IMG/VR virus record: IMGVR_UViG_3300008735_000128
Coordinates: 1-20,123 of that record
Length of the DNA stretch: 20,123 nt
Reading direction: 5' to 3' (one strand)
Source: a virus
In this document: positions 3,596 through 20,123 of the stretch, piece by piece
Numbering within the stretch: the first letter of the stretch is position 1
Layout of the letters: each line of letters opens with the position of its first letter
The notes under the pieces: generated by a model
What the model was told of the DNA's origin: nothing
The model's database searches: none
What the model saw: the letters and a program-made list of their open reading frames with translations, nothing else
Position numbers and translations under genes: made by a program

Positions 3596-3824
3596 GGATA
3601 TATTCAAAGATATGACATACGAATCACTTAATAAACAAGTAGATGGAACACATTATAAAAATATGAAAGTGCAACCTGCACATTTTATTAATGAAAATAA
3701 ACTTCTATTTGCAGAAGGTAACGCAATAAAGTATATATGTAGGCATCATCTTAAAGGTAAAAAGAAAGATATAGAGAAGGCTATACATTACTTAGAAATG
3801 ATATTAGAAAGAGATTACTCATGA
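3585..3824 (+). CDS. DUF3310 family protein (nucleotide kinase-associated phage protein)
   Basis: The 79 residues carry the DUF3310 signature: H-Y at 23-24, Q-P at 30-31, G-N-A-I-K-Y-I-C-R at 45-53, then K-G-K-K-K-D-I-E-K-A and Y-L. The family is widespread in phages as a stand-alone domain or fused to other domains. It is sometimes labelled nucleotide-kinase-like, but its biochemistry is not settled to my knowledge. The start used overlaps the previous gene by 11 nt. A second in-frame ATG at 3612 has AAGGA 13 bases ahead and would keep the domain. The stop overlaps the next start (ATGA). Confidence 0.85.
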   Translation: MTHKDIFKDMTYESLNKQVDGTHYKNMKVQPAHFINENKLLFAEGNAIKYICRHHLKGKKKDIEKAIHYLEMILERDYS

Positions 3825-4498
3825 GTCATTATAGTGATTTAAATAAAGAGAATAAAGAACTTAAAATCTATAGACCATTTGGTCCTTCAATTGGTCATTG
3901 TAAATTACCACAAGAACTCATTAATGATTTTAATAAAGACTGTGAACATATTATGGATCATGAAGTTAAGAAAAAAACTCATGATTTTTCTGATGAACTT
4001 GTTGGTAATGTTAAGCAAGAATTAGTTATCTCACCTGAAACATTTTCTAAATGGGGTGCTTACTTTGGTAAGTTAATGGATGCTTATATAGAAGCACATC
4101 CTGAGAACCACAAAGAATTACAGAAGATAATATTCAAATCTGGATGGTATGTTCGTACATTTGCTGGTGATTTTAACCCAGCTCATTATCATACTAATTG
4201 TCATGTGTCTTGTGTAGGTTATTTAAAACTACCTGATGACATTGAAGAAGAATGGAAGAAAGAAGATAATGATCATTATCCATCTGCTGGTGGTATTGAA
4301 ATGCAATATGGACAAGTCCATTTGTTCTCAAATAATACTGTAAGGATTAGACCAAAGGTTGGTGATTATTATATCTTTCCTTGGTGGATGTACCACATGG
4401 TATATCCTTTTAGATCAAAGGGAGAACGTAGATCTTTTAGTTTTAATGTATATGGTAAACCAAAAGAAGATCCTAAACCTAGGGAACTAATTCTATAG
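3821..4498 (+). CDS. 2-oxoglutarate/Fe(II)-dependent oxygenase-like protein
   Basis: The product is 225 residues. The C-terminal half matches the phage 2OG-Fe(II) oxygenase fold: A-H-Y-H at 121-124 (iron-ligand region), a beta-strand V-S-C-V-G-Y-L-K-L-P, G-D-Y-Y-I-F-P-W-W-M-Y-H (His192, distal iron ligand) and R-R-S-F-S-F-N at 203-209 (2OG-binding arginine). This order is that of the putative 2OG-Fe(II) oxygenases common in marine phages. The substrate is not shown; DNA bases, protein or a small metabolite are all possible. The N-terminal 100 residues are helical and not recognised. It is the last plus-strand gene, and its 3' end is overlapped in antisense by the gene at 4479-4607. Confidence 0.78.
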   Translation: MSHYSDLNKENKELKIYRPFGPSIGHCKLPQELINDFNKDCEHIMDHEVKKKTHDFSDELVGNVKQELVISPETFSKWGAYFGKLMDAYIEAHPENHKELQKIIFKSGWYVRTFAGDFNPAHYHTNCHVSCVGYLKLPDDIEEEWKKEDNDHYPSAGGIEMQYGQVHLFSNNTVRIRPKVGDYYIFPWWMYHMVYPFRSKGERRSFSFNVYGKPKEDPKPRELIL

Positions 4499-6710: not shown

Positions 6711-7120
6711 GCTCTATACATTCCTTCCACCAACAACTCATCGTTATAAGGTTGTTTTCCATTCTCCATACGAATAATTGATTTTACAAGTGGTAAGTAA
6801 TGCTCGATACTGTTATCGAGTTTATCCATAGGATTTACGTTTATTTCTTTACACACAAAATCTATGTAAGCATTAGTATCATTTTCAGAGGGTGGTGCCC
6901 ATCTGGATATAATGTCGTCTACGCTAGTTCTTTTGTGAGTAAATCTATATGTTAAAAGTATTTTCATTAAAGCTCTGATACCCATTACAGCTTCGTCAAA
7001 AATACAAAAAACTGGATCAGATTGCTCTGATGCCAGTCCATCCCATTCAGTACCAAGTTTGATATTGCCTGGGTTCTTATTTCTTATACCTCTAGGTAAT
7101 TTTTCTGTTCCATCTGCCAT
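6674..7120 (-). CDS. putative muralytic enzyme (phage P5/transglycosylase-like)
   Basis: The 148-residue product begins with the signature L-P-R-G-I-R-N-K-N-P-G-N-I (8-20), then E-W-D-G-L-A, D-P-V-F-C-I-F-D near 36-43, M-G-I-R-A-L, and R-W-A-P-P-S-E-N-D-T near 68-77. 'RGIRNxNPGNI ... GIRAL ... WAPPxENDT' is typical of phage proteins annotated as structural protein P5 or as lytic transglycosylase-like enzymes. The catalytic glutamate is not certain by eye. No signal peptide is present, so release would need the holin encoded downstream. An endolysin is likely; a virion-borne muramidase is the alternative. The start overlaps the phosphoesterase gene by 29 nt. Confidence 0.65.
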   Translation of the reverse strand: MADGTEKLPRGIRNKNPGNIKLGTEWDGLASEQSDPVFCIFDEAVMGIRALMKILLTYRFTHKRTSVDDIISRWAPPSENDTNAYIDFVCKEINVNPMDKLDNSIEHYLPLVKSIIRMENGKQPYNDELLVEGMYRAWEGYPTGSSAS

Positions 7121-7796
7121 TGTCTTTTAAAACCATTGGGATTAATTTAGGCAATCCATCAATGATAACTCCTGTTCCTATTACTGGTCTACACTTCTGA
7201 AGTTTATTATATTCAAAAGCTAAACTTTTCATGTTAATTAAACATCCAACTTGCATACCCCAAAGTAGTTCATTGGGATTACTCCAATAATCTATTTTGA
7301 ACTGTGTGTGATAATGTCCTTGAACAGTACACATACCATATTGTTGTGCTACTTTTAGAACATCTTTATATTTACCATGGCAGAAGTAAATTTTTTGACC
7401 ATTGGATGCTTTTAAAATCAAATCTTCATGCCACGTCCAACCTTTTCCCACACCTAACATCTTATTATAAGATTGAAATACTTCGTGAGGCAAACCATAT
7501 CTAGTTGCTTTTCTAAATACTAAACTACCATGGTTACTATCCATAATGTATTGTTTAGGAAATAGTTTTTCTAAGTTTTTAAAAAACTCTCTAGCAACTT
7601 GAAGTTCATGACTAGGTGAGTAAAGCCCAGGGTGAGAATCATGGAAGGATATTGAGTGCCAATCCATTTCATCACCTATGTTCACTACTGTGTCAGGCTT
7701 ATACTTTTTCTTTATTGCTGTTAAAAAGTCAAGCGTATCTATATGGTGATAGGGTGCGTGTTGATCGCTTATAACAAGTATTGATTTACTTAGCAT
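7092..7796 (-). CDS. calcineurin-like metallophosphoesterase
   Basis: The 234-residue product has the metallophosphoesterase motifs in order: S-D-Q-H (Asp11, His13), N-I-G-D (Gly41, Asp42), D-S-N-H-G (Asn88, His89), C-H-G (His140) and Q-G-H-Y-H (Gly160, His161, His163). These bind a two-metal centre that hydrolyses phosphoesters. Phage members are found among lysis or tail genes. The substrate (nucleotide, nucleic acid or protein phosphate) cannot be read from sequence. No Shine-Dalgarno is seen before the ATG at 7796, and the first ATG of the frame is used. It sits between the secreted-protein genes and the muralytic gene. Confidence 0.85.
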   Translation of the reverse strand: MLSKSILVISDQHAPYHHIDTLDFLTAIKKKYKPDTVVNIGDEMDWHSISFHDSHPGLYSPSHELQVAREFFKNLEKLFPKQYIMDSNHGSLVFRKATRYGLPHEVFQSYNKMLGVGKGWTWHEDLILKASNGQKIYFCHGKYKDVLKVAQQYGMCTVQGHYHTQFKIDYWSNPNELLWGMQVGCLINMKSLAFEYNKLQKCRPVIGTGVIIDGLPKLIPMVLKDNGRWNRKIT

Positions 7797-7849
7797 ATAT
7801 ACGCTTTTACAATTATTCGGTGAATAAGTCTACCAACTAAGGTACAACT

Positions 7850-8092
7850 TTATGCCTCTATTTTAGGCTTTGCTTTAGGTAATATTATTTCTGTTTCTTT
7901 ACAAACAAATCTTATATAGATTTTATGTTTGTTAATTTCTTCTTTACCAATTTCTTTAGATTTTTTTAAAGACTCAGCATAACCTGCATTTAGACAGTCA
8001 TATATACTATCATATTTGTCAGGCATTGGATGAGGTGGCATACATTCTCCTGCCATCAGAGAACATATAATCATCAGCAATGTATACTTCAT
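7850..8092 (-). CDS. small secreted cysteine protein
   Basis: The 80-residue product starts with a clear hydrophobic segment (Y-T-L-L-M-I-I-C-S-L-M-A-G) that reads as a signal peptide. Y-D-C-L-N-A-G-Y-A-E (Cys33), a charged middle and F-V-C-K-E-T (Cys64) follow. The M-A-G-E-C sequence at 13-17 is close to a lipobox, though E at -1 makes lipidation unlikely. The plan 'hydrophobic start, CLxAG, xVCKxT' recurs in the proteins at 5205-5420 and 2351-2581. It shares one base with the XhlA-like gene upstream. The 53-nt gap after it (7797-7849) holds only short AT-rich inverted repeats. Confidence 0.6.
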   Translation of the reverse strand: MKYTLLMIICSLMAGECMPPHPMPDKYDSIYDCLNAGYAESLKKSKEIGKEEINKHKIYIRFVCKETEIILPKAKPKIEA

Positions 8093-8292
8093 TACAAATG
8101 TTTAGTAACTAATACTAATACCTGTCCTAATACACCTAAACCAATTGCAGTAATAATCCATTGAATTCTATCAATGCTTTTCTGTATATGTTTAAGGTGA
8201 TTATTTTCTATGTTATCTATTCTCTGATTAATAAGATCTATAGATCCATATATTTTAAGAATTTCTTCTCTGTTTTCTGTATGTCTAGACAT
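8092..8292 (-). CDS. XhlA-like membrane protein (holin-associated candidate)
   Basis: The 66-residue product has a heptad-rich N-terminus (I-D-L-I-N-Q-R-I-D-N-I-E-N-N-H, then I-Q-K-S-I-D-R-I) and one C-terminal membrane span of about 18 residues (W-I-I-T-A-I-G-L-G-V-L-G-Q-V-L-V-L-V) with a short basic end. Coiled coil followed by C-terminal anchor is the XhlA form, a holin-associated membrane protein. It is the first gene of the lysis block and would add to, or modulate, the main holin downstream. Function rests on shape only. Confidence 0.55.
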   Translation of the reverse strand: MSRHTENREEILKIYGSIDLINQRIDNIENNHLKHIQKSIDRIQWIITAIGLGVLGQVLVLVTKHL

Positions 8293-8294
8293 AA

Positions 8295-11200
8295 TTAAAA
8301 TAACGTTTCGTAAGGAGACCTTACTAACCCTTTCGTTTTATATTGTGTATAACGTGGTCCTTGGTATCTAGGATGACCACTTTGTCCTAGCACAAAATCT
8401 ACTGCAGTGTCCCAAGCAAGATCAGCACTTAAGCCATCTCGTTCTAAACCTTCAGCAATATTTTGTGATGCTGTTTGTAGCCAGATTGGTAAGAATCTCT
8501 TACCTATTTGACCCCCTATTTTTAAGCCTTTCTCAATAGCTTCATCATCTTTCTTAGTGATGTTTGGACTCCATTTAGTAGTCAAGTATTTCTTATTAGT
8601 TAATACTTCTATTGTTACTCTAGGTAATGCTCCAATCTTTTTAAGACCTGTAGATTGTGGAGCTGTTATCCAATGGAAAGGTTCCATTAACTGTTTAGAG
8701 AAAGTAAGAACTTCACCATTCCCTAAGTCAATTCTAGTTGGATCTGTATTTTCCAAAATAGAGTGTCCACTAAACGCATAGTTTAATGCTGATCCTGCTG
8801 CTGCATATATTACTGCAGCTCTAAGGAAATAATACTGATATAATCTACGTAAGTTTGGATCTTTCTCAAACGCAGGTAATGACTTAGCAATAATTCTAAT
8901 ATTAGATATTGTCCAGTCAGGTGCAAACATAAGTAGCTGCATATATCCTCTAGATCCTGGTCTAAAGGTAGTTTGCATCATACTCTTAAGCCAAGGAGTT
9001 TGTATCTTATTAGCTACTGTTGCCCAATCTTGTCCACCAAAAGCATCATTAGCAAACTGTGCTGCTCTTTGTGCTTTTCTATGTATAATAGCTTGAGTGT
9101 CTCCTGGTTGTACTGTTTTATTTAATGCTGTAAGAAATGTATTAAGTTTAGCATGAGTAAATACTCTATCCCAAGTAATTCTATCAAACCACTTAAATAC
9201 TTTTTCAACCTTTTCTGCAGGTGAAACACCAAAGTGTCTTTTCCAAAACTTATCTATAGAAGTTCTTTGTAGTCCACTAAAATTGTAATAAAATCTATCA
9301 AAACCTATATCTTCAGGTGTACTTATTTGTACCCCAGATCCTCTAGCAAATTGGACTACATCTTTATAACCATTTCTTTCTAAAATTTCTAAAGCATGAG
9401 GAAACTCAGCTCTATACTTAGCAGGGTTATCAATAAAACTTTGTAATTCTTGTTTTGATCTAGGGTTAATTACTCTACCAATAGTTCTTAATTTATGTCC
9501 AGCAAAGATCATGCTTTCTACTAAAGCACCAGCATGGAAGAATGAAAATCCTACTGCTAGTCTTTTCATCATTAAGTTAGTAGTAAAGAGTGCAGACATT
9601 AATGCTTGTTCGTCTTTAGCATCAAATACCATTCTTAAAGATTTTTCCATACCTCTATGTACGTATGGCATACCAAATTTATTTTCAAAATAAGGATGAT
9701 CAAACTTAATGTAGTCTTGACCTATAGGTGTTGTTTTAACATTTCTAACAAGTAAAGGTTTACCACCAATATTAGATCTTTCTAAGTTACTTATTAAAGC
9801 TCTTGTTGATAATGCTTTGCCTGCAGCATGAGTATATATTTTAATAAGTTCTGTTGGATCTTCATATTCAGGTTTAATTTTATAACCTTTTTGTAATCCT
9901 CTATTAATATCTCCAAACATACCTCTTTTTCCAAATTGGAACGTAGGTGATACACCAGTTATAGCTTTATCAAATTCTTTAACAAATTTAAAAGGTTGTT
10001 CTGCTGGATTATAATGTTTCCAAAGTAAAGGTAAATAATTAGCTCTTTTAGAACTAAATAAACCTAAACCTTTTTCTCCAAAGGTAGAACCGAAATCATC
10101 AAATATTTTTTCAATAGCTTTAGCTGCTTGTAATTCAGCTTTGCTTAATTGATCTGCACTAATAGGTTTAAATTTTGGATTATAAACTTCAGGTGGTCTT
10201 AATGTTTTAGGATCTACTTTGGCTCTAGTTATATAATAAAATACTTTAGGTCTTGAATCTATAGCATCAGGAATCATTAACTTAATAGCATTAGATAATT
10301 CATGTCCTGAAGAATTAAGTTTAACAGAATTTAATTTCATGGCATCTAAACCAGCTTCTACATTTTCTGCTGCTAGATCCATTTCTTTGGATGTAGTTTT
10401 TAATCTTCTAGTTAATAATTTTCCTGCACCATAAACAGCTAAACCTGCTGCAGCTCCTTTAGCAGTTGCTAAAACTTTATCATCATCTGCTGTAAGGAAT
10501 TGTGCAACTCCTCCGATTGCTGCTAATGAACCTGCTACTTTTAAAGAATTAGCAATAGCCATATCTTTAGCATTTTCATTAAGAGTTCTAAGAGCTGAAG
10601 TCATATCTGCTTTTAAAGCATCAAACTTTTCAGGACTTGCAGCATCTTTAGCGTTTACTTTAAGATCTTCTACAATATCATCTATTGATCTATAAATACC
10701 ATCTTTGTATTCAATCATTTTCTCAGGATTATTTTGGTACTTTTGATAAGTTTTATTCTGAATATTTATTATTCTTTGCTTATTCATATTGGTAGCTTTT
10801 TGTATTAAAGCACCAGTACCTGCAAATCCTACTGAGATTAAAGCTCCTGCTGTAGCTCCAATAGTAGTTTCTATTGTAGTTCTTTTAGGATCTAATTTTG
10901 CATCCTCAGATAATTGCCATACAGATGAGAATACTAATGGTGTTGCAAGAGTAGCTGTAGCACCTACTTTTAGATCTGACATAGCTTGAGCTTTTTTAGA
11001 TGCTCTTGCTACTTTAGTTAATTGTAAATTTTTTGCTGATTTAAGTCTAATAGCATTAACAACTCCTCTACCTAATCTATGCCAACCAAGAGGCATAAAT
11101 AATAACCAAGGATCTGCCATTAACATATTAGCAAGTTCAGCACCAAAGAGTTTGGGATTCTTTTTAATCATATTCCCAACTTCTTTAAAGTCTATAGACA

Positions 11201-11513
11201 TTGGTCCTTCATCTAATAAGTAACCAAATCTTTGAAGTTTTCTTTCAGCTTCTTGATAGATTGGAGTTCCTTTTAAATTAGGATTATTACGTATATATTC
11301 TAATGCTTCTTGTGCTTGTTTCTTCTTAGTGTTTCCAGTCATCCATTGATAGAGAGATGCTGGTAAGGATTCTTCCAACATAAGATGATAAGGATTTCTA
11401 AGAGACTGAAAAAAACCTGGAGTTTTATCTTGTACTGGATCTTTTAATCCATCAGGTATTTGTCTAATAGGATCTCTTAGTCTTGGATCATTAAGATTAA
11501 GATCGTTAGCCAT
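8295..11513 (-). CDS. large virion protein, putative ejection/internal protein (1072 residues)
   Basis: The largest gene of the window. Low-complexity-free and mostly helical, it has a proline-rich N-terminus, hydrophobic segments at about 133-142, 183-198, 218-236 and near 330-360, and a C-terminal region at 863-912. The last contains F-A-P-D-W-T-I-S-N-I-R and a hydrophobic helix (R-A-A-V-I-Y-A-A-A-G-S-A-L-N-Y). The C-terminal 'APDWT..NxR' plus hydrophobic helix resembles the LPD38-type domain of phage large polyvalent proteins. Size, hydrophobic helices and place beside tail genes suggest an internal protein ejected with DNA, like gp16 of T7. No lysozyme or transglycosylase motif is evident to me. 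Confidence 0.6.
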   Translation of the reverse strand: MANDLNLNDPRLRDPIRQIPDGLKDPVQDKTPGFFQSLRNPYHLMLEESLPASLYQWMTGNTKKKQAQEALEYIRNNPNLKGTPIYQEAERKLQRFGYLLDEGPMSIDFKEVGNMIKKNPKLFGAELANMLMADPWLLFMPLGWHRLGRGVVNAIRLKSAKNLQLTKVARASKKAQAMSDLKVGATATLATPLVFSSVWQLSEDAKLDPKRTTIETTIGATAGALISVGFAGTGALIQKATNMNKQRIINIQNKTYQKYQNNPEKMIEYKDGIYRSIDDIVEDLKVNAKDAASPEKFDALKADMTSALRTLNENAKDMAIANSLKVAGSLAAIGGVAQFLTADDDKVLATAKGAAAGLAVYGAGKLLTRRLKTTSKEMDLAAENVEAGLDAMKLNSVKLNSSGHELSNAIKLMIPDAIDSRPKVFYYITRAKVDPKTLRPPEVYNPKFKPISADQLSKAELQAAKAIEKIFDDFGSTFGEKGLGLFSSKRANYLPLLWKHYNPAEQPFKFVKEFDKAITGVSPTFQFGKRGMFGDINRGLQKGYKIKPEYEDPTELIKIYTHAAGKALSTRALISNLERSNIGGKPLLVRNVKTTPIGQDYIKFDHPYFENKFGMPYVHRGMEKSLRMVFDAKDEQALMSALFTTNLMMKRLAVGFSFFHAGALVESMIFAGHKLRTIGRVINPRSKQELQSFIDNPAKYRAEFPHALEILERNGYKDVVQFARGSGVQISTPEDIGFDRFYYNFSGLQRTSIDKFWKRHFGVSPAEKVEKVFKWFDRITWDRVFTHAKLNTFLTALNKTVQPGDTQAIIHRKAQRAAQFANDAFGGQDWATVANKIQTPWLKSMMQTTFRPGSRGYMQLLMFAPDWTISNIRIIAKSLPAFEKDPNLRRLYQYYFLRAAVIYAAAGSALNYAFSGHSILENTDPTRIDLGNGEVLTFSKQLMEPFHWITAPQSTGLKKIGALPRVTIEVLTNKKYLTTKWSPNITKKDDEAIEKGLKIGGQIGKRFLPIWLQTASQNIAEGLERDGLSADLAWDTAVDFVLGQSGHPRYQGPRYTQYKTKGLVRSPYETLF

Positions 11514-14314: not shown

Positions 14315-15045
14315 TATAATAATCCTCCTAATAATCCAAAACCACCACCGATTGCAGCTCCCATGCCTGGCATACCAAACATAGATCCTAATGCAGCTCC
14401 AGACATTGCTCCACCTGCAGCCATACCCATAGTATTACCACGTGGTGCTTGTGTTTGTTGTTGTGAAATAGGCATACCAAAACCAATAGGTGCAACAGTA
14501 TTATAGTATTGTTGCAACGCCATCTGTGGTCCTAATTGTTGTTGTGCTTGTATATCTTCTAATTGTCCTCCAACAGCTGTTAAACTAGGTACTCTTTGTG
14601 CTGTTGATAACTGTCTACCTCTTTCTCTTTCTAACTGTTGAAAGGCATAAGGTAATGCTTTGTTAGCAACCTGTCCTGTAACAGTAGCTTGAGAGAGAGG
14701 GCTTCCTGGTGTTCTACCAGCTCCACTAAACTGACCAGCAACATTAGAATATATATCAGTAGCAGCTTGTCCTATCAAAGGAGATAAGAAAGGATTAGTG
14801 TACTGACCCTGTATAGTGCCTAATATTTGTTGGTTTGCAGCATTAGCAATTTGTTCTTGTGCAGCTAATCCTTGCATAGTTTGTGTTGTTGGAGCAACGT
14901 AACCAGCTCCTGCTGGTCCTTGTCCATATATTGTACCAGCTTCAGATAAAATCTGACCTAATGCTGGTTCTGCTGGTCCATAAGGTTGTGTAGTTGTAGT
15001 TTGTGTACCACCTCCACCTCCTGAACTTCCTCCTCCAAATGACAT
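14314..15045 (-). CDS. glycine-rich tail/ejection protein with glycine-zipper end
   Basis: The 243-residue product begins with a poly-glycine/serine head (F-G-G-G-S-S-G-G-G-G-G-T-Q-T-T-T), followed by P-Y-G-P-A-E-P-A-L. A helical Gln- and Ala-rich middle comes next (L-A-A-Q-E-Q-I-A-N-A-A-N-Q-Q), and then a C-terminal stretch from about 205 that is almost only Gly, Ala, Met, Phe and Leu (A-A-G-G-A-M-S-G-A-A-L-G-S, ending G-L-L-G-G-L-L). The start 'GGG..TQTT..P' is typical of short phage tail proteins located beside internal virion proteins. The end is a glycine-zipper-like membrane-active segment. AAGGAG precedes the ATG. A role in DNA entry is inferred. Confidence 0.55.
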   Translation of the reverse strand: MSFGGGSSGGGGGTQTTTTQPYGPAEPALGQILSEAGTIYGQGPAGAGYVAPTTQTMQGLAAQEQIANAANQQILGTIQGQYTNPFLSPLIGQAATDIYSNVAGQFSGAGRTPGSPLSQATVTGQVANKALPYAFQQLERERGRQLSTAQRVPSLTAVGGQLEDIQAQQQLGPQMALQQYYNTVAPIGFGMPISQQQTQAPRGNTMGMAAGGAMSGAALGSMFGMPGMGAAIGGGFGLLGGLL

Positions 15046-15046
15046 A

Positions 15047-15484
15047 TTATTTTTTCTCCTTTTTCTTTTTTTCTAATAGAACATGACTCTCTGTATAACC
15101 AAAGGGTTTAAGAATTTTCTTCCACCCTGGTCTTGCTACTAATTCTAGTAGATCACATTTGTTTAGCCACGCAAAATCTTCTATGTGTTTTATTAAATGT
15201 TGCCACTTTTCACGATGTCTACCTGTCATAATTTTGATATTAAGACAACGTTGTAATGGTCTTTGTATTATTTCTGTTACTACTAATCCATAATACTTGG
15301 ATTCCTTTGCAGCATCTTTATCCCATAGGATCCATAACTGCATCTTTTCTTCATTGATCCATTTCTTAATATGGTCTGCTAAAGCATAACCATTGGATCT
15401 ATTTAAAGAGTTAGCGATGTCTGTTTTTACTACACCCCAAACTTCGTTAACGCTTTTAGTCGGAACGTATATTAATTCGATCAT
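15047..15484 (-). CDS. GNAT-like protein
   Basis: The 145-residue product has the secondary-structure order of the GNAT fold: a helix (A-L-A-D-H-I-K-K-W-I), strands (L-W-I-L-W-D and Y-G-L-V-V-T-E-I), C-L-N-I-K-I-M-T-G-R-H-R-E-K-W near 80-94 where the CoA-binding loop should be, helix, then L-E-L-V-A-R-P-G-W-K-K-I-L-K-P-F-G-Y near 114-131 with a basic end. The 'AR.GW.K.L...GY' end is common in such phage proteins. The canonical Q/R-x-x-G-x-G/A loop is not clear, so activity is uncertain. It sits between tail genes, a place where phages often carry one. The target is unknown. Confidence 0.55.
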   Translation of the reverse strand: MIELIYVPTKSVNEVWGVVKTDIANSLNRSNGYALADHIKKWINEEKMQLWILWDKDAAKESKYYGLVVTEIIQRPLQRCLNIKIMTGRHREKWQHLIKHIEDFAWLNKCDLLELVARPGWKKILKPFGYTESHVLLEKKKKEKK

Positions 15485-15807
15485 GTTACTGACATATATG
15501 ATATACCAAAATGAACTGAATCTGAACTACTAACTGTAGCTTTTAAAGCATCAGATGCCTCTAAAACTAGAGGTACTGATAGTATTTCTACTGCTGTATT
15601 AGCAGCAAGAGTTTGTGTTTTTAATATTGTATACTCAGCACTAGCTGAATTATCTGCTACATCAAATGATAATGTCGGTGTATTACTTGTATTATTAGTA
15701 GCTCTTATAGACTTTATAATCAAAGTCTCATCTGATCCTGCAGTTAATAATGCAGTTTCACTACTTGTTGCTAATGCAACTCCTTTAAATTTGTAACTAT
15801 TTGCCAT
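15481..15807 (-). CDS. small beta-rich virion-associated protein
   Basis: The 108-residue product is rich in Ser, Thr, Ala and Val with regular strands (F-K-G-V-A-L-A-T-S, L-I-I-K-S-I-R-A-T-N, L-S-F-D-V-A-D, A-V-E-I-L-S-V-P-L-V-L). S-D-S-V-H-F-G-I-S-Y ends it. It has no Cys and no signal. A beta-sandwich of this size in a tail cluster may decorate the particle or act as an adaptor. The start is preceded by the chaperone-like gene at one base, and the stop overlaps the GNAT-like gene by 4 nt. The family is not recognised by name. Confidence 0.55.
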   Translation of the reverse strand: MANSYKFKGVALATSSETALLTAGSDETLIIKSIRATNNTSNTPTLSFDVADNSASAEYTILKTQTLAANTAVEILSVPLVLEASDALKATVSSSDSVHFGISYMSVT

Positions 15808-15808
15808 A

Positions 15809-16087
15809 TCATTTTGGGTACTTAGCTTTTACAGCTTTTATTGCTTCATAGAAAGCAAAATATTTCTGCTTTAATTCTGCGTTTTCATCAATAGAATGCC
15901 AAAGCATATCCAACTGATCCCCAATTTGAGGATAAGCTAGTTTCCTTTTAGCCACATAAGGCTTTGGTTCTGTCTTAACTTCTTTAGCTTTCTTTGCTGC
16001 ATGAGCTGCTTCATTAGCATCCCATTCAGATTCTTCAGCACTTGTAAAAGGTACTTTTATTCCATTGATTAAATGATGTCTTGCCAT
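15809..16087 (-). CDS. tail-fibre chaperone-like protein, copy 1
   Basis: The 92-residue product has a short start (H-L-I-N-G-I-K-V-P-F-T), then an alanine- and lysine-rich helix (E-W-D-A-N-E-A-A-H-A-A-K-K-A-K-E), Y-P-Q-I-G-D-Q-L-D-M-L-W-H near 52-64 and a final A-V-K-A-K-Y-P-K. 'YPxxxDQLDxxxH ... KxKYPK' is a signature of small proteins next to fibre genes in marine phages, thought to be assembly chaperones. The plan is repeated at 17942-18220. AAGGAG precedes the start. It lies right after the adhesin array. Confidence 0.6.
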   Translation of the reverse strand: MARHHLINGIKVPFTSAEESEWDANEAAHAAKKAKEVKTEPKPYVAKRKLAYPQIGDQLDMLWHSIDENAELKQKYFAFYEAIKAVKAKYPK

Positions 16088-16096
16088 GTTTTCTCC

Positions 16097-16717
16097 TTAG
16101 TTAATTCCATATAAACAAATATCTCCAGCATCTATGTTGCCACTATCCATTTTGAATTGTATTTCGTCTATTGCACTTGTGGTATTAAAGTAACCACTAA
16201 TGTAACCAACTAAACTTTGATTGTCATCTGAAGAAAGATTAGTTGTTGCTATAAAATGCTTTACAAATGTTGTTGATGATGGATTAAATAAATGTAAATA
16301 ACCAGATGCAGATTGATCATTATCATTACCAAAATCAAAAGTAACAGCTTGGAAACTTGTGCTTTGTGCTAAATCATAAGCTGTCATATAACCAAGAGCT
16401 GTTTCACTATCATCTTCAGCATGTCTTGCTCTAAATGCAGTTGAGGTAATAGTTTCATTGTATCCTGAACCTCCAGCAGCATTTCCTTGAAAAGTTAAAC
16501 GCTTTCCATCTGTTTGACCATGAATATTATTAAAAGTAAACAAGTATTCCTTGTAAGTATCATCAAGAACAACATCGCTTGTTCCATCAACAAAGGATAT
16601 AGTTGCAGATGATGAGGCAGTTTGTTTTTTAATAAACCTCATTTCTCCTAAAGCTGATATGCTTCCAAAGGTTGTCGCTGATCTTACACCTCTATTATTT
16701 AATTTAACTATGCTCAT
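16097..16717 (-). CDS. adhesin-type tail protein, paralogue A
   Basis: The 206-residue product shares a plan with the two genes upstream. An N-terminal attachment part of about 30 residues is followed by Q-T-A-S-S-S-A-T-I-S-F near 32-42, G-T-S-D-V-V-L-D-D-T-Y, G-S-G-Y-N-E-T-I-T-S-T-A-F, G-N-D-N-D-Q, F-N-P-S-S-T-T-F-V-K-H-F and an end with Q-F-K-M-D-S-G-N-I-D-A-G-D-I-C-L-Y-G-I. The body is all strand, of lectin-like or jelly-roll type. It is likely a receptor-binding tip. It has the same body as its neighbours but differs most in surface segments. The start shares a base with the paralogue upstream, and AAGGAT precedes it. Confidence 0.65.
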   Translation of the reverse strand: MSIVKLNNRGVRSATTFGSISALGEMRFIKKQTASSSATISFVDGTSDVVLDDTYKEYLFTFNNIHGQTDGKRLTFQGNAAGGSGYNETITSTAFRARHAEDDSETALGYMTAYDLAQSTSFQAVTFDFGNDNDQSASGYLHLFNPSSTTFVKHFIATTNLSSDDNQSLVGYISGYFNTTSAIDEIQFKMDSGNIDAGDICLYGIN

Positions 16718-17346
16718 TAACTATCCTTAATTCCATAGAGTTTGATTGTGCCACTATCTATGTTGCCTGAAAGCATTTTAAACTGAACTCTTGTAAGAGC
16801 TGTTGTTGTATTAAAATATCCTGCTGCGTAAAAATCAGCAGCATAATCACTAGCATGAGAAGCACTTGATCTGCATATAAAATGCTTAACAAAAGTAGAT
16901 GATGATGGATTAAATATATGCAAATATCCACTAGCAGCTTGGTCATTGTCGTTTCCAACAGTTCCACCAGCAGTTAGTTTTTGAAATGCTGTGCCTTGTG
17001 CCTGATCTTCTCCTGTTACATAGCCAAGTCCAGCATCACTACCTGCTTCGTCTGCATAAGCTCTAAAAGTTGAAGAAGTACAAGCTATATTATAGCTAGT
17101 ATTAGTTCCTGTATCTACCTGAAATGCAAATTGTGTATTATTAGTTGCTGGATGAATATTTATAAATTTAAAAACATAAATTGGATAGGTGCTATCAAAA
17201 ACTACATCTGATGTTCCATTAAGAAAATCAATAGTAGAACTTGATGATGCTGTTTGTTCTTTAATTAAAGTCATAGCACCAGTAGGTAAGCTAGAAGCTG
17301 CTGTAATAGCACTTAAACTATTGTTGTTGTATTTAACTAATGCCAT
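16717..17346 (-). CDS. adhesin-type tail protein, paralogue B
   Basis: The 209-residue product has the same order as paralogue A. It has A-L-V-K-Y-N-N-N-S-L-S-A-I-T, Q-T-A-S-S-S-S-T-I-D-F, G-T-S-D-V-V-F-D-S-T-Y, N-I-H-P-A-T-N, N-D-N-D-Q-A-A-S-G-Y-L-H-I-F, F-N-P-S-S-S-T-F-V-K-H-F and Q-F-K-M-L-S-G-N-I-D-S-G-T-I-K-L-Y-G-I. The 'NIHPAT' and 'GNDxDQ' blocks also occur in paralogue C. Loops between the blocks differ. Likely one of several interchangeable receptor-binding tips. Confidence 0.65.
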   Translation of the reverse strand: MALVKYNNNSLSAITAASSLPTGAMTLIKEQTASSSSTIDFLNGTSDVVFDSTYPIYVFKFINIHPATNNTQFAFQVDTGTNTSYNIACTSSTFRAYADEAGSDAGLGYVTGEDQAQGTAFQKLTAGGTVGNDNDQAASGYLHIFNPSSSTFVKHFICRSSASHASDYAADFYAAGYFNTTTALTRVQFKMLSGNIDSGTIKLYGIKDS

Positions 17347-17938
17347 ATAATTTTATAACTCCACTATCTATATTGCCTGATGACATTTTAAATTGTATTT
17401 CGGTTATTGCTGAAGTCGTATTAATGTAACCAGCATGAAACCTGTGAATAGTAAAATCTGAATTTTGTGCAACATTACTTTCTGCCATAAAATGCTTAAC
17501 AAAAGTTGTGCTGCTAGGTGCAAAAAGATGTAAAGTTCCATTCATATTTTGATCGGCATCATTTCCTAAAGTGTTTGATATAAATTGAAAAGCTGTACCT
17601 TGTGCTTGATCTTCTGCTGCGTCATAACCTACTGCTGTAGTATCTCCAGCCTCATTATGATGTGCACCAAAAGCTGTGCTTGTAATAGTTTCATTATATC
17701 CTGAACCTCCACTAGCATTTGCTTGGAATGAAAATCTTTCTCCATCAGCAGATGGATGAATATCATAAAACTTAAAAACATACTCATCATAGGTATCATC
17801 AATATTACTTGTAAAAGAAATTGTAGCTGAACTTGATGCAGTCTGCGTTTCTAATAAAGTCATAGCACCACCAGAAATTGCTGATGGTAAAGCTGTAATC
17901 GCAGTCAAGGATTGATTATTGGCTACTTTGATTGCCAT
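17333..17938 (-). CDS. adhesin-type tail protein, paralogue C
   Basis: The 201-residue product has A-I-K-V-A-N-N-Q-S-L-T-A-I-T, Q-T-A-S-S-S-A-T-I-S-F, F-Y-D-I-H-P-S-A-D, G-S-G-Y-N-E-T-I-T-S-T-A-F, G-N-D-A-D-Q-N-M-N, F-A-P-S-S-T-T-F-V-K-H-F and Q-F-K-M-S-S-G-N-I-D-S-G-V-I-K-L-Y-G-I. The last 14 nt overlap paralogue B. AAAGGAG precedes its ATG. It has fewer residues between the first two blocks than A and B (the G-T-S-D-V-V block is missing). Same likely role as its neighbours. Confidence 0.65.
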   Translation of the reverse strand: MAIKVANNQSLTAITALPSAISGGAMTLLETQTASSSATISFTSNIDDTYDEYVFKFYDIHPSADGERFSFQANASGGSGYNETITSTAFGAHHNEAGDTTAVGYDAAEDQAQGTAFQFISNTLGNDADQNMNGTLHLFAPSSTTFVKHFMAESNVAQNSDFTIHRFHAGYINTTSAITEIQFKMSSGNIDSGVIKLYGIS

Positions 17939-17941
17939 TGA

Positions 17942-18220
17942 TTACTCCTTTGGATATTTGTCTTTAGTTACTTTAATAGTAGCTTTCCAACCATCAATTC
18001 CATTGTGATAGATGTCGTCTAATTGATCTTCAATAGTTGGATATTCGTTTTCTCTTTTATATTTATATTCATTTGGATCAACCCAAGCATTTACATCTGT
18101 CCAATTAATATTTACTTCATCTCCATTAACATCTGTTGCAACTATAGTTTCTTGTGTATCGCCACTTATATTTATTACCGATACATGAATTGCTCTTATT
18201 GCTTTATGTAAATCTGCCAT
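17942..18220 (-). CDS. tail-fibre chaperone-like protein, copy 2
   Basis: The 92-residue product has an N-terminal region with strands (A-I-H-V-S-V-I-N-I-S-G, E-T-I-V-A-T-D-V-N-G-D-E) and the end E-Y-P-T-I-E-D-Q-L-D-D-I-Y-H-N-G, T-K-D-K-Y-P-K-E. The final third is the same design as copy 1 (Y-P-x-I-x-D-Q-L-D-x-x-x-H ... K-Y-P-K), while the first two thirds differ. It lies between the fibre gene and paralogue C, as expected for an assembly factor serving either. GGAGGT stands 12 bases ahead of the start. Confidence 0.6.
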   Translation of the reverse strand: MADLHKAIRAIHVSVINISGDTQETIVATDVNGDEVNINWTDVNAWVDPNEYKYKRENEYPTIEDQLDDIYHNGIDGWKATIKVTKDKYPKE

Positions 18221-19101
18221 TATGCTAATACCTCCATCAAAGTTATTGTTGATGCTGTGTTTCCACCATTTGCGTCAATAGTTGCTGGTCTGCCTATATA
18301 AGCAGTACCACCTTCTGTCCACCATTGTACTTGATAAGTAACTTCTGATGTTGAAGATGGAGAATCTAAATAATTCATATTGTTTGACATTAATGAATAA
18401 CCAGCTCTAATATGTGTAGCTGTCATCGCTGTTTCATGTCCAGTAGCCGCATCTCCTATATATGATGCAGTATTTCCACCAGTAAGTTTAAAGTGAACTC
18501 TATAATATTGATTTGTATGACTGGTTGTTAAACTAACTAAAATAAGTATTTTACTTGATGTTGCTGATGGTGTTATAGCTGCAACTACTCCTGTTAAATT
18601 TGTTGCTGTAGTAGATGTTGTACTAACAGTAGAAGTTAAAGTTGTACTAACAACTTGTCCAATTTTTCCTCCACCTTTAATTAAACTGTAATCAATTCTT
18701 TTTAAAGTTCCAGCATCTGAAACCAAGAACTCATCAGTATCTGCTGGTGTACTTGCTAAAGCAGTTTCTCCAGAAATAATGTCTTGTGCTAATTTTGCAT
18801 TGGTTACAGTTCCATCGCTTGGTGTTCCAAGATCAAGAACATTACCTAACAAGATTACAAAGTCTATTACATCACCTGTTGCTAAGTTTGATGCAAAAGT
18901 AAGCGTTGAACCAGATACTGTAAATGAAGTTACTGGTGATTGTAAAATTCCATTAAGTGAAACCAACATATGATTTGCACTTTCAGGAACTACATTTGTT
19001 GAGCTTACTTGTAATGTGTATGCTGCTTGTCCATTAACAACAGTAATTGCATCACACTTTTGAAAGTTTCCTACTATTGGTTCTTTTCCTATATATGCCA
19101 T
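18220..19101 (-). CDS. tail fibre protein
   Basis: The 293-residue product has three parts. Residues 1-90 are a strand-rich attachment domain beginning A-Y-I-G-K-E-P-I-V-G-N-F and containing G-Q-A-A-Y-T-L, V-S-L-N-G-I-L-Q and F-V-I-L-L-G-N. Residues 96-142 are a linker that is nearly repeated in the upstream adhesin. Residues 146-293 are a beta-rich head with S-K-I-L-I-L-V-S-L, Y-R-V-H-F-K-L-T-G-G, Y-Q-V-Q-W-W and a final T-I-T-L-M-E-V. A fibre that begins 'AYIGKEP' is common in marine phages. AGGAG precedes the ATG. Function: a stem with a host-contact tip. Confidence 0.65.
   Translation of the reverse strand: MAYIGKEPIVGNFQKCDAITVVNGQAAYTLQVSSTNVVPESANHMLVSLNGILQSPVTSFTVSGSTLTFASNLATGDVIDFVILLGNVLDLGTPSDGTVTNAKLAQDIISGETALASTPADTDEFLVSDAGTLKRIDYSLIKGGGKIGQVVSTTLTSTVSTTSTTATNLTGVVAAITPSATSSKILILVSLTTSHTNQYYRVHFKLTGGNTASYIGDAATGHETAMTATHIRAGYSLMSNNMNYLDSPSSTSEVTYQVQWWTEGGTAYIGRPATIDANGGNTASTITLMEVLA
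18676..18816 (-). repeat. shared linker module, copy in the fibre gene
   Basis: This 47-codon segment encodes residues 96-142 of the fibre protein. It matches the segment at 19947-20087 in 36 of 47 residues by eye. Its start is D-G-T-V-T-N-A-K-L-A-Q-D and its end is L-K-R-I-D-Y-S-L-I-K. Confidence 0.75.
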
Positions 19102-19104
19102 AAA

Positions 19105-19401
19105 TTATTCTCCTGGTTTTGTTGGAAATTCTTTTGCGTTTATTTTTTCAACAGTATCTAATCCAGATGGTAAATCTCTTAATGCAGTTCTATAAGTTTT
19201 CCAATCATCACTCATAGTTACATCGGAGTTAGCCATCCAATCAGTTGCTTTTAGTAGATTGTTTCTTCGTTGTCTTAAATCTTCTAAAGCTCTATTTAAA
19301 GCACCATTATTCCAATTAGTATCTTTTGTATTTAATGCAGTTATTTCTTCAGCTGTTAATTCAACTCTAACTCCATTTTTTATTCTATGTGTATATGTCA
19401 T
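19105..19401 (-). CDS. phage tail assembly chaperone-like protein (Phage_tail_APC type)
   Basis: The 98-residue product has V-E-L-T-A-E-E-I-T-A-L near 10-20 and the family pattern L-R-Q-R-R-N-N-L-L-K-A-T-D-W near 43-56, then W-K-T-Y-R-T-A-L-R-D-L near 68-78, ending E-F-P-T-K-P. 'RRxxLLxxTDW....DDWxxYRxALRDxP' is the mark of a tail assembly chaperone family. These help fold or join fibres and are usually found beside them. It lies between the two fibre-type genes with end-to-end spacing. Confidence 0.75.
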   Translation of the reverse strand: MTYTHRIKNGVRVELTAEEITALNTKDTNWNNGALNRALEDLRQRRNNLLKATDWMANSDVTMSDDWKTYRTALRDLPSGLDTVEKINAKEFPTKPGE

Positions 19402-20123
19402 TATTGATTAATCCCAAATAAAGTAAATTTTCCAGTAGCAATATTCCCACTAGACATTGTAAATCTAACGCAGTCTGCTGCTGATAATATGTTACCAGCA
19501 ACTCTAGTAGCAAAAATTCTATTGGCGTATGAATAAACATTGCAATAAATATCATAGATACCATCGTTACTACCTTGTCCAAGTTCAGTAAAATATGCTC
19601 TCAGCATTCCACCTTTACCTTCGTTAGCGTCATTATTTAAGTTAGAATTTATATTTTGATCTGCTGTTGAATTATCTAAAGAACTAACAGCAGACATTCC
19701 ACCACCTTCACTATCATCACCAGCATCATTATTATAATCATAAGCAAAAACAGAAGTTTTGTTTGCAGCATAAGTTGAACCATCTGTTCCAAAATTTACT
19801 TCAAAAGAAACATTATCTGTAGCTGGTCTAATGTTGCTTCCTATTATGCAATACATGGAATAAGTTGAAGCTATGTCATCAAAATCTACTGATGATGAAG
19901 AACTTGCTGTTACTGTTGATCCTATTTTAACCCAACCTGGAGATGCTTTAATATGCGAATAATCCATTCGTTTTAAAGTACCAGCGTCAGATATTAATAA
20001 TTCATCTGTGTCTGCTGGTTCTGCACCTAAAGCTGTATCTGCTGAAATTATATCTTGTGCTAGTTTAGCATTTGTAATTATTCCATCTGCTACATCAGAA
20101 CTTGTTAAAGGTGCTGCTGTAGG
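19401..20123 (-). CDS. fibre/adhesin protein, partial, runs off right edge
   Basis: The frame is open from the right edge to the stop at 19401 (240 visible residues). An internal Met at 19967 can be mistaken for the start. The upstream 52 codons match the linker of the neighbouring fibre, so the true start lies beyond 20123. From about residue 62 it has V-T-A-S-S-S-S-S-V-D-F, N-I-R-P-A-T-D-N, T-A-D-Q-N-I-N and an end F-T-M-S-S-G-N-I-A-T-G-K-F-T-L-F-G-I. This is the plan of the A/B/C paralogues but with different inner loops. So one protein joins a fibre-type stem to an adhesin-type head. Confidence 0.7.
   Translation of the reverse strand, partial: PTAAPLTSSDVADGIITNAKLAQDIISADTALGAEPADTDELLISDAGTLKRMDYSHIKASPGWVKIGSTVTASSSSSVDFDDIASTYSMYCIIGSNIRPATDNVSFEVNFGTDGSTYAANKTSVFAYDYNNDAGDDSEGGGMSAVSSLDNSTADQNINSNLNNDANEGKGGMLRAYFTELGQGSNDGIYDIYCNVYSYANRIFATRVAGNILSAADCVRFTMSSGNIATGKFTLFGINQ
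19947..20087 (-). repeat. shared linker module, copy in the partial adhesin gene
   Basis: This segment encodes D-G-I-I-T-N-A-K-L-A-Q-D through L-K-R-M-D-Y-S-H-I-K and aligns without gaps with the copy at 18676-18816. The rest of the two genes downstream of it is unrelated, which marks the end of the module. Confidence 0.75.

What the first reader, a model, noticed from the sequence alone, without database searches (positions are those of the whole stretch)
18676..20087. Same linker, different head: stem-and-head module swap
Two genes share a 47-residue linker (36 of 47 identical) at 18676-18816 and 19947-20087. After it, one continues into a long beta-rich head, the other into an adhesin head of the A/B/C type. 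The join is sharp. The linker DNA is similar enough to act as a recombination point for exchanging heads between fibres.
Basis: seen in the sequence. Interest (0 to 1): 0.6.

Follow-up and report, generated by a model that had tools for sequence, protein, structure and literature searches.

The report
Phage adhesin heads swapped at linker
In viruses that infect the abundant ocean bacterium SAR11, a short conserved connector in the fibre proteins marks the place where whole receptor-binding heads, apparently with the matching half of a small helper protein, have been exchanged between viruses many times, which explains how their host-recognition region can vary so much.

Summary
The window is a fragment of an HTVC010P-type Pelagibacter (SAR11) phage, and two adjacent adhesin genes share a 47-aa linker (36/47 identical) followed by unrelated heads. 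A 99.96% identical contig completes the right-hand gene: its N-terminus shares only MAYIGKxP with the fibre, so the stems differ as well. Between the two copies in this genome there is no DNA-level trace of recombination (72% nt, longest exact run 10 bp, synonymous sites saturated), so that part of the reading fails. Between phages, head exchange at the linker is strongly supported. In 94 linker genes, residues before the linker core follow the N-terminal anchor and residues after it follow the head. DNA identity falls from ~95% to ~75% inside the linker and to background in the head. Head family is nearly independent of anchor phylogeny, and all four large head families occur behind several anchors. 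The window's fibre shares its 90-nt core (27/29 same codons) with a gene bearing another head. The N-half of the small downstream ORF travels with the head; its tail is shared between head families. Cultured HTVC035P and HTVC203P show different heads on the same N-termini at all four adhesin genes. The hypervariable locus was known; the joints and cassette appear undescribed.

The parts
20088..20123 (-). Gene 1 (slot 1), end of its N-terminal anchor; the anchor start MAYIGKSP lies outside the window and is read from L005:4980-
   Evidence: L005 is 99.96% identical over 2277 bp and extends the gene to 247 aa
20037..20087 (-). Gene 1 linker, 5' part (follows anchor type)
19947..20036 (-). Gene 1 linker core (TALGAEPADTDELLISDAGTLKRMDYSHIK), universal joint
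   Evidence: predicted beta-hairpin 48-53/56-61
19404..19946 (-). Gene 1 head, family hc0 (phrog_14820, same as A/B/C genes)
19105..19401 (-). Small ORF after gene 1, Phage_tail_APC (PF16778), tail fibre assembly type
   Evidence: PF16778 E=7.3e-11
18817..19101 (-). Gene 2 (slot 2) N-terminal anchor, 'long' type MAYIGKEPIVGNFQ... (about 95 aa)
   Evidence: phrog_18673 tail fibre
18766..18816 (-). Gene 2 linker, 5' part (follows anchor type)
18676..18765 (-). Gene 2 linker core (TALASTPADTDEFLVSDAGTLKRIDYSLIK), universal joint; 96% nt identical to the core of L053 fibre, which carries another head
   Evidence: predicted beta-hairpin 124-129/132-137
18223..18675 (-). Gene 2 head, family hc1 (GKIGQVV type), predicted TNF/C1q-like fold as in trimeric lectins
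   Evidence: Foldseek to TNF-like lectins 9ib7 and BC2L-C 2wq4
18065..18220 (-). Small ORF after gene 2, N-terminal half: co-varies with head family
17942..18064 (-). Small ORF after gene 2, C-terminal tail (..DQLDDIYHNGIDGWKATIK..): shared across head families; second joint, homology to relatives resumes about here
16097..17938 (-). Three tandem head-only adhesin genes A/B/C (17333-17938, 16717-17346, 16097-16717), two with NNxSLSAIT-type anchors, hc0-type heads, no linker
   Evidence: phrog_14820 E 1e-82 to 1e-86

Best explanation
The linker is the joint of a modular adhesin system in pelagiphages. Each adhesin is an anchor (several types, mostly fixed to a genomic slot), a 5' linker that belongs to the anchor, a near-universal 30-aa core (predicted beta-hairpin and short turn), and an exchangeable receptor-binding head. 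Heads have been replaced many times by recombination between co-infecting phages; the crossovers visible today lie at the upstream edge of the core, inside it, or at its end. A second boundary lies downstream, in the conserved tail of the small assembly-type ORF or at the start of the next adhesin gene, so the usual unit of exchange is head plus N-half of the small ORF. Shown: module boundaries, DNA breakpoints, repeated replacement, co-variation of head and small-ORF N-half. Inferred: homologous or homeologous exchange as the DNA mechanism (a phage-encoded nuclease may help), the chaperone role of the small ORF, and host-range change as the selective benefit. The two linkers in this one genome are old paralogues held alike by protein constraint, not current recombination partners.
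For: Column-wise association: positions -24 to -8 follow anchor type (z mostly 8-24), positions beyond +24 follow head family (z mostly 5-13), the 30 positions between largely follow neither. 154 same-anchor pairs: DNA identity ~0.95 in the 5' linker, ~0.75 in the core, ~0.35 in the head; changepoints cluster at -12..-1 and +16..+26; a set not selected on the linker (24 pairs chosen on the anchor alone) gives codon identity 0.83 / 0.81 / 0.66 / 0.56 against ~0.53 expected. BLAST blocks from the window: 37/37 slot-1 blocks end in the linker; 77/77 slot-2 blocks end between the last ~50 bp of the anchor and ~40 bp past the linker; homology resumes in the small-ORF tail or next gene. On the ML tree of 35 anchors head family needs 11 changes, shuffled mean 12.3. 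All four large head families occur behind several anchors; L094/L096 heads 87% aa, 90% nt identical behind unrelated anchors. The window fibre core shares 27/29 codons with L053, 5' linker 60%, head 29%, P=1.7e-6, passes Bonferroni over 2584 pairs. Small-ORF N-half identity 0.39-0.47 for same head vs 0.18 for different head, irrespective of anchor; head x ORF-type association 0/2000 shuffles. HTVC035P vs HTVC203P: four adhesins, same N-termini, different heads.
Against: The core still differs by ~25% nt in most same-anchor pairs, so many crossovers lie upstream of it and the core's sharing between head families is largely protein-level. Only 2 of 2584 cross-context pairs pass Bonferroni for core DNA identity, though 27 have p<0.001 against 2.6 expected; pairs are not independent. 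Loci were fetched by similarity to the window's own proteins, so anchors and linker are enriched by design. No recombination was observed directly, and no phenotype links head to host. Only one of the small-ORF families has a significant chaperone match (PF16778); the other has a sub-threshold XkdW hit.
Confidence: 0.82

Rival explanations
1. The linker is conserved only because it is structurally needed (a trimeric beta collar that accepts any head). Illegitimate recombination strikes anywhere and selection keeps only junctions that preserve the collar; the DNA of the linker plays no part.
For: The two window copies are synonymously saturated; core is mostly invariant in protein but ~75% in DNA across same-anchor pairs; AF2 predicts a folded beta-hairpin there.
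Against: Excess of cross-context pairs with near-identical core DNA (27 at p<0.001, 2.6 expected), including the window's own fibre with L053, and exact runs up to 65 bp between genes with different anchors.
Confidence: 0.35
2. Heads are not exchanged but diverge very fast under arms-race selection behind a slowly evolving stem.
For: Some same-slot heads within one family are related at 30-50%.
Against: The same slot carries heads of families with no detectable similarity, the downstream ORF changes type with the head, and near-identical heads sit behind unrelated anchors (L094/L096).
Confidence: 0.04
3. A dedicated switching device (site-specific inversion, diversity-generating retroelement or homing endonuclease) makes the exchanges.
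For: Such devices act on phage fibre genes elsewhere (general knowledge), and nuclease genes can sit at exchange boundaries (title and abstract of PMC10448857).
Against: Both linkers lie in the same orientation, so inversion between them is excluded; no recombinase, reverse transcriptase or homing nuclease was found among the window ORFs scanned. The rest of the genome (HTVC010P has 34.9 kb) is not in the window.
Confidence: 0.05
4. The two genes of this phage exchange heads with each other through their linkers.
For: Same orientation, 1.27 kb apart, 72% nt identical; head families occur in both slots across phages.
Against: Synonymous saturation, longest exact run 10 bp, no concerted evolution in 25 within-genome pairs.
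Confidence: 0.06

Closest known systems
Metaviromic islands / hypervariable host-recognition region of HTVC010P-type pelagiphages (Mizuno 2014 PMC3909814; Buchholz 2023 PMC10504331)
   Same: Same phage group; N-terminus of fibre and of C1q-type proteins recruits metagenome reads while the C-terminal domain does not; XkdW and tail fibre assembly genes listed in the islands
   Different: The passages read describe under-recruitment and variability; no linker joint, breakpoints, reuse of heads in different slots or co-moving half ORF were found in them
Modular receptor-binding proteins of T7-like and Klebsiella phages (conserved N-terminal anchor, exchanged C-terminal specificity module; e.g. PMC8262889, abstract)
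   Same: Anchor plus exchangeable head, horizontal transfer of heads
   Different: Here small TNF/C1q-like or other beta-rich heads, several tandem slots per genome, one 30-aa core shared by several anchors and head families; no depolymerase detected in the heads
Fibre plus cognate assembly chaperone pairs (T4 gp37/gp38, Tfa family from general knowledge; PF16778 Phage_tail_APC by test)
   Same: Small gene directly after the fibre, partner-specific portion co-varies with the head
   Different: The head-specific part is the N-terminal half, and the C-terminal tail is a separate, interchangeable module
TNF-like trimeric lectins (PLTL, PDB 9ib7; BC2L-C N-domain, PDB 2wq4)
   Same: Predicted fold of the slot-2 head (TM to target about 0.7-0.8)
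   Different: About 13% sequence identity; sugar binding of the phage head not tested

Membership tests
HTVC010P-type pelagiphage (proposed Ubiqueviridae) | Homologous adhesin locus with similar gene order to HTVC010P-type isolates | tested here: met
   HTVC010P is the best DNA match over 15000-20123 (49% covered, 68% identity); all 14 matching records are marine phages, 10 of them Pelagibacter. Whole-genome criteria could not be tested on a 20-kb fragment.
Modular phage receptor-binding protein | Conserved N-terminal anchor with non-homologous exchangeable C-terminal head | tested here: met
Modular phage receptor-binding protein | Head binds a host receptor and sets host range | not testable with these tools
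   Only indirect: HTVC035P and HTVC203P share anchors, differ in heads and are recorded on different hosts
TNF/C1q-like head | Jelly-roll fold of the TNF superfamily | tested here: met
   By prediction only, slot-2 head: Foldseek prob 1.00, E 9.5e-7, TM to target 0.77, rmsd 2.8 A. Slot-1 head: no specific match.
Fibre assembly chaperone | Match to a chaperone family | tested here: inconclusive
   Gene-1 ORF PF16778 E=7.3e-11; the other ORF family only XkdW E=0.007, below cut-off
Fibre assembly chaperone | Specific portion co-varies with head | tested here: met
Diversity-generating retroelement / invertible fibre segment | Reverse transcriptase with template repeat, or invertase with inverted repeats | tested here: not met
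   Linkers are in direct orientation; no such gene among the window ORFs scanned; the rest of the genome is unavailable

The most novel reading that the evidence does not exclude
Pelagiphages share a pool of adhesin cassettes, each made of a head and the head-specific half of its assembly factor, which plug into any of several anchors in any of about four tandem slots through two short conserved joints, the linker core upstream and the assembly-factor tail downstream. The same core occurs in isolates of differing genome size (HTVC010P, 026P, 106P, 115P), so the joint would be a common standard for SAR11 phages.
Probability: 0.5. Interest if true: 0.68.

Novelty: new variant of a known kind. 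Interest (0 to 1): 0.52.

Why it matters
Pelagiphages are among the most abundant viruses in the sea and their host-recognition genes are hypervariable, mostly annotated 'hypothetical protein' and hard to compare. Knowing the joints gives a rule for cutting these proteins into anchor, head and helper, lets heads be catalogued across slots and phages, and makes it testable which head decides which SAR11 strain is infected. The co-movement of head and half of a small ORF also suggests a partner for each head family.

Tried and rejected
Recombination between the two copies of this genome: rejected by synonymous saturation. Concerted evolution of the two slots: no sign. Rapid divergence without exchange: rejected. 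Inversion, retroelement or homing nuclease as driver: nothing found in the window. Fold search with the slot-1 gene model gave only generic low-scoring beta proteins (pLDDT 67). In one search the printed 'mid-level identity' was a wrong column; the correct profile is. The pair set was selected on a similar 5' linker, which inflates that part; one search repeats it selected on the anchor alone. Blocks shorter than 100 bp were left out.

Full report
The window and the observation. The window is the whole of a 20,123-bp linear virus record. Its 15000-20123 part matches Pelagibacter phages best, HTVC010P first. On the minus strand a row of adhesin genes alternates with small ORFs: gene 1 (19401-20123, cut by the window end), APC-type ORF (19105-19401), gene 2, the 'fibre' (18220-19101), small ORF (17942-18220), three tandem adhesins A/B/C (16097-17938) and a further small ORF (15809-16087). 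The shared linker is at the stated coordinates, 36/47 residues identical, DNA 102/141, third positions 23/47, longest exact run 10 bp.

The missing part. Contig IMGVR 3300009370_000601 (L005) is 99.96% identical to the window over 2277 bp and continues beyond its end. The full right-hand gene has 247 residues and begins MAYIGKSPTAAPLTSSDVADG before the linker; the fibre begins MAYIGKEPIVGNFQ and has about 80 further residues before its linker. Only MAYIGKxP is common.

Within this genome the linker is held by protein constraint. At the 36 same-amino-acid sites the two genes use the same codon 19 times; codon usage predicts 20.0 (P=0.70). Twenty-five within-genome pairs of adhesins with different anchors give 0.544 observed against 0.551 expected in the core. 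There is no sign of recent exchange or gene conversion between the two slots of one phage.

Between phages the linker is where heads change. From two scans of viral contigs 103 distinct linker-bearing proteins were extracted. Anchors fall into five types: short; short DLDP (as in HTVC010P); PLPAETF (about 90 aa); long (about 94 aa, or up to 114 with extra short repeats); and a giant type of about 655 aa. Heads fall into four large families (hc0 phrog_14820-like, 52; hc1 GKIGQVV, 21; hc2 NTPAF, 12; hc3 ITEADQWRL, 9) and a few small ones; all four large families occur behind more than one anchor type. Column-wise association over 79 proteins shows anchor-dependence up to position -8, head-dependence beyond about +24, and a core of 30 positions that largely follows neither (0 is the A of ADTDE).

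Breakpoints in DNA. In 154 same-anchor pairs with unalignable heads, identity is about 0.95 in the 5' linker, 0.75 in the core and 0.35 (background) in the head, with changepoints at -12..-1 and +16..+26. That set was selected on a similar 5' linker; chosen on the anchor alone, 24 pairs of long anchors give codon identity at same-amino-acid sites of 0.83 (anchor), 0.81 (5' linker), 0.66 (core) and 0.56 (head), expected 0.51-0.56. In BLAST blocks from the window joined to L005, all 37 slot-1 blocks end in the linker, and all 77 slot-2 blocks end between the last ~50 bp of the anchor and ~40 bp past the linker; none goes deeper into the head. The window's fibre is 0.93-0.96 identical in the anchor to L048, L017 and L044, with heads at 0.32-0.37. 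Its core shares 27 of 29 codons with L053, whose 5' linker (0.60) and head (0.29) differ, P=1.7e-6, one of two pairs passing Bonferroni over 2584; 27 pairs reach p<0.001 where 2.6 are expected. Exact DNA runs of up to 65 bp in the core link genes with different anchors. L094 and L096 carry heads 87% aa, 90% nt identical behind unrelated anchors. A maximum-likelihood tree of 35 long anchors needs 11 head-family changes (minimum 3), shuffled mean 12.3, as low in 26 of 200 shuffles: head family is nearly free of anchor ancestry.

The unit of exchange appears larger than the head. The small ORF after each adhesin falls into two families. Its N-terminal part follows the head family (identity 0.39 with different anchors and 0.47 with the same anchor when heads match, 0.18 when heads differ) and the association of head with ORF type survives shuffling within anchors (0 of 2000). 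Its C-terminal tails are shared across head families at 83-92% DNA identity over about 100 bp. In slot 2, homology to relatives resumes mostly at REF 7060-7190, which is window about 18064-17934: the tail of the small ORF or the next gene. The likely cassette in slot 2 is window 18675 down to about 18065; in slot 1 it runs from 19946 to within the APC ORF or to the start of gene 2.

Cultured phages. HTVC035P (recorded host HTCC1062) and HTVC203P (FZCC0015) have the same order of four adhesins. Slot 2 shares 127 N-terminal residues at 90% or more, slot 1 153, the other two 28 and 21; every head differs, and two of the three small ORFs compared differ in keeping with the head. HTVC010P itself has an hc1 head in slot 1, the family that the window carries in slot 2. 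In the phage collection the linker was found only in Pelagibacter phages, eight records.

Structure. AlphaFold2 models (pLDDT 67 and 73) predict a beta-hairpin with a short helix in the core of both proteins. The slot-2 head matches TNF-like lectins (9ib7, 2wq4; TM to target about 0.7-0.8); the slot-1 head has no specific match. An hc2 head has a sub-threshold TNF match in Pfam, in line with the C1q domains reported for such phages (PMC3909814). The models are monomers from shallow alignments, so trimer geometry is inference.

Prior knowledge. Mizuno et al. (PMC3909814) showed for HTVC010P-like phages that N-termini of the fibre and of C1q-type proteins recruit and C-termini do not, and listed XkdW and fibre assembly genes in variable islands. 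Buchholz et al. (PMC10504331) describe a hypervariable region as conserved in HTVC010P-type phages. Modular receptor-binding proteins with exchanged heads are well known. What seems new is the specific joint, its two edges, the reuse of head families in different slots, and the co-moving half ORF; the literature search covered open-access papers only.

Mechanism and limits. A PD-(D/E)XK-type nuclease at 822-1643 (PHROG exonuclease E=3.5e-4, Pfam below cut-off) could support exchange between diverged sequences, but this is inference. Two readings remain open: crossovers guided by short DNA identity in the linker, or random crossovers with selection keeping the structural collar. The excess of identical cores favours some role for DNA identity; the 25% divergence of most cores favours the second. 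Both may act. Loci were gathered by similarity to the window's own proteins, so the frequency of linker use among all pelagiphage adhesins is not estimated here.

Noticed in passing
L003 about 7489-8124 (minus strand), HTVC010P: The slot-1 adhesin of HTVC010P (TTG start, short anchor, linker, hc1 head) is not annotated over its N-terminus and linker in the RefSeq record; only a C-terminal ORF is annotated.
   Followed up: partly
window 16097-17938: Three tandem adhesins with the hc0-type head on a different anchor and no linker; in HTVC035P/203P a similar anchor (MAIIKPNNNT) carries an hc0-like head in one phage and an hc1-like head in the other, so a second kind of joint exists.
   Followed up: partly
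L147:4980-5321 (HTVC203P gp36): Small ORF that looks like an hc1-type N-half fused to an APC-type tail, a natural chimera of the two assembly-factor families.
   Followed up: partly
L005:2514-4589: Upstream 691-aa fibre (TTG start) ends in a distant version of the linker (NADRLVVNDNGTMVQVALSDIK), suggesting the core is an old fibre motif.
   Followed up: no
window 8295-11513: 1072-aa protein, probably an internal virion protein by position, with no PHROG or Pfam match.
   Followed up: no
window 3821-4498 and 7092-7796: 2OG-Fe(II) oxygenase and metallophosphoesterase genes.
   Followed up: no
L053:260-1231 versus window 18220-19101: Same anchor and same core DNA but a different 17-codon 5' linker and a different head: the 5' linker itself seems to be a further exchangeable block.
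   Followed up: partly
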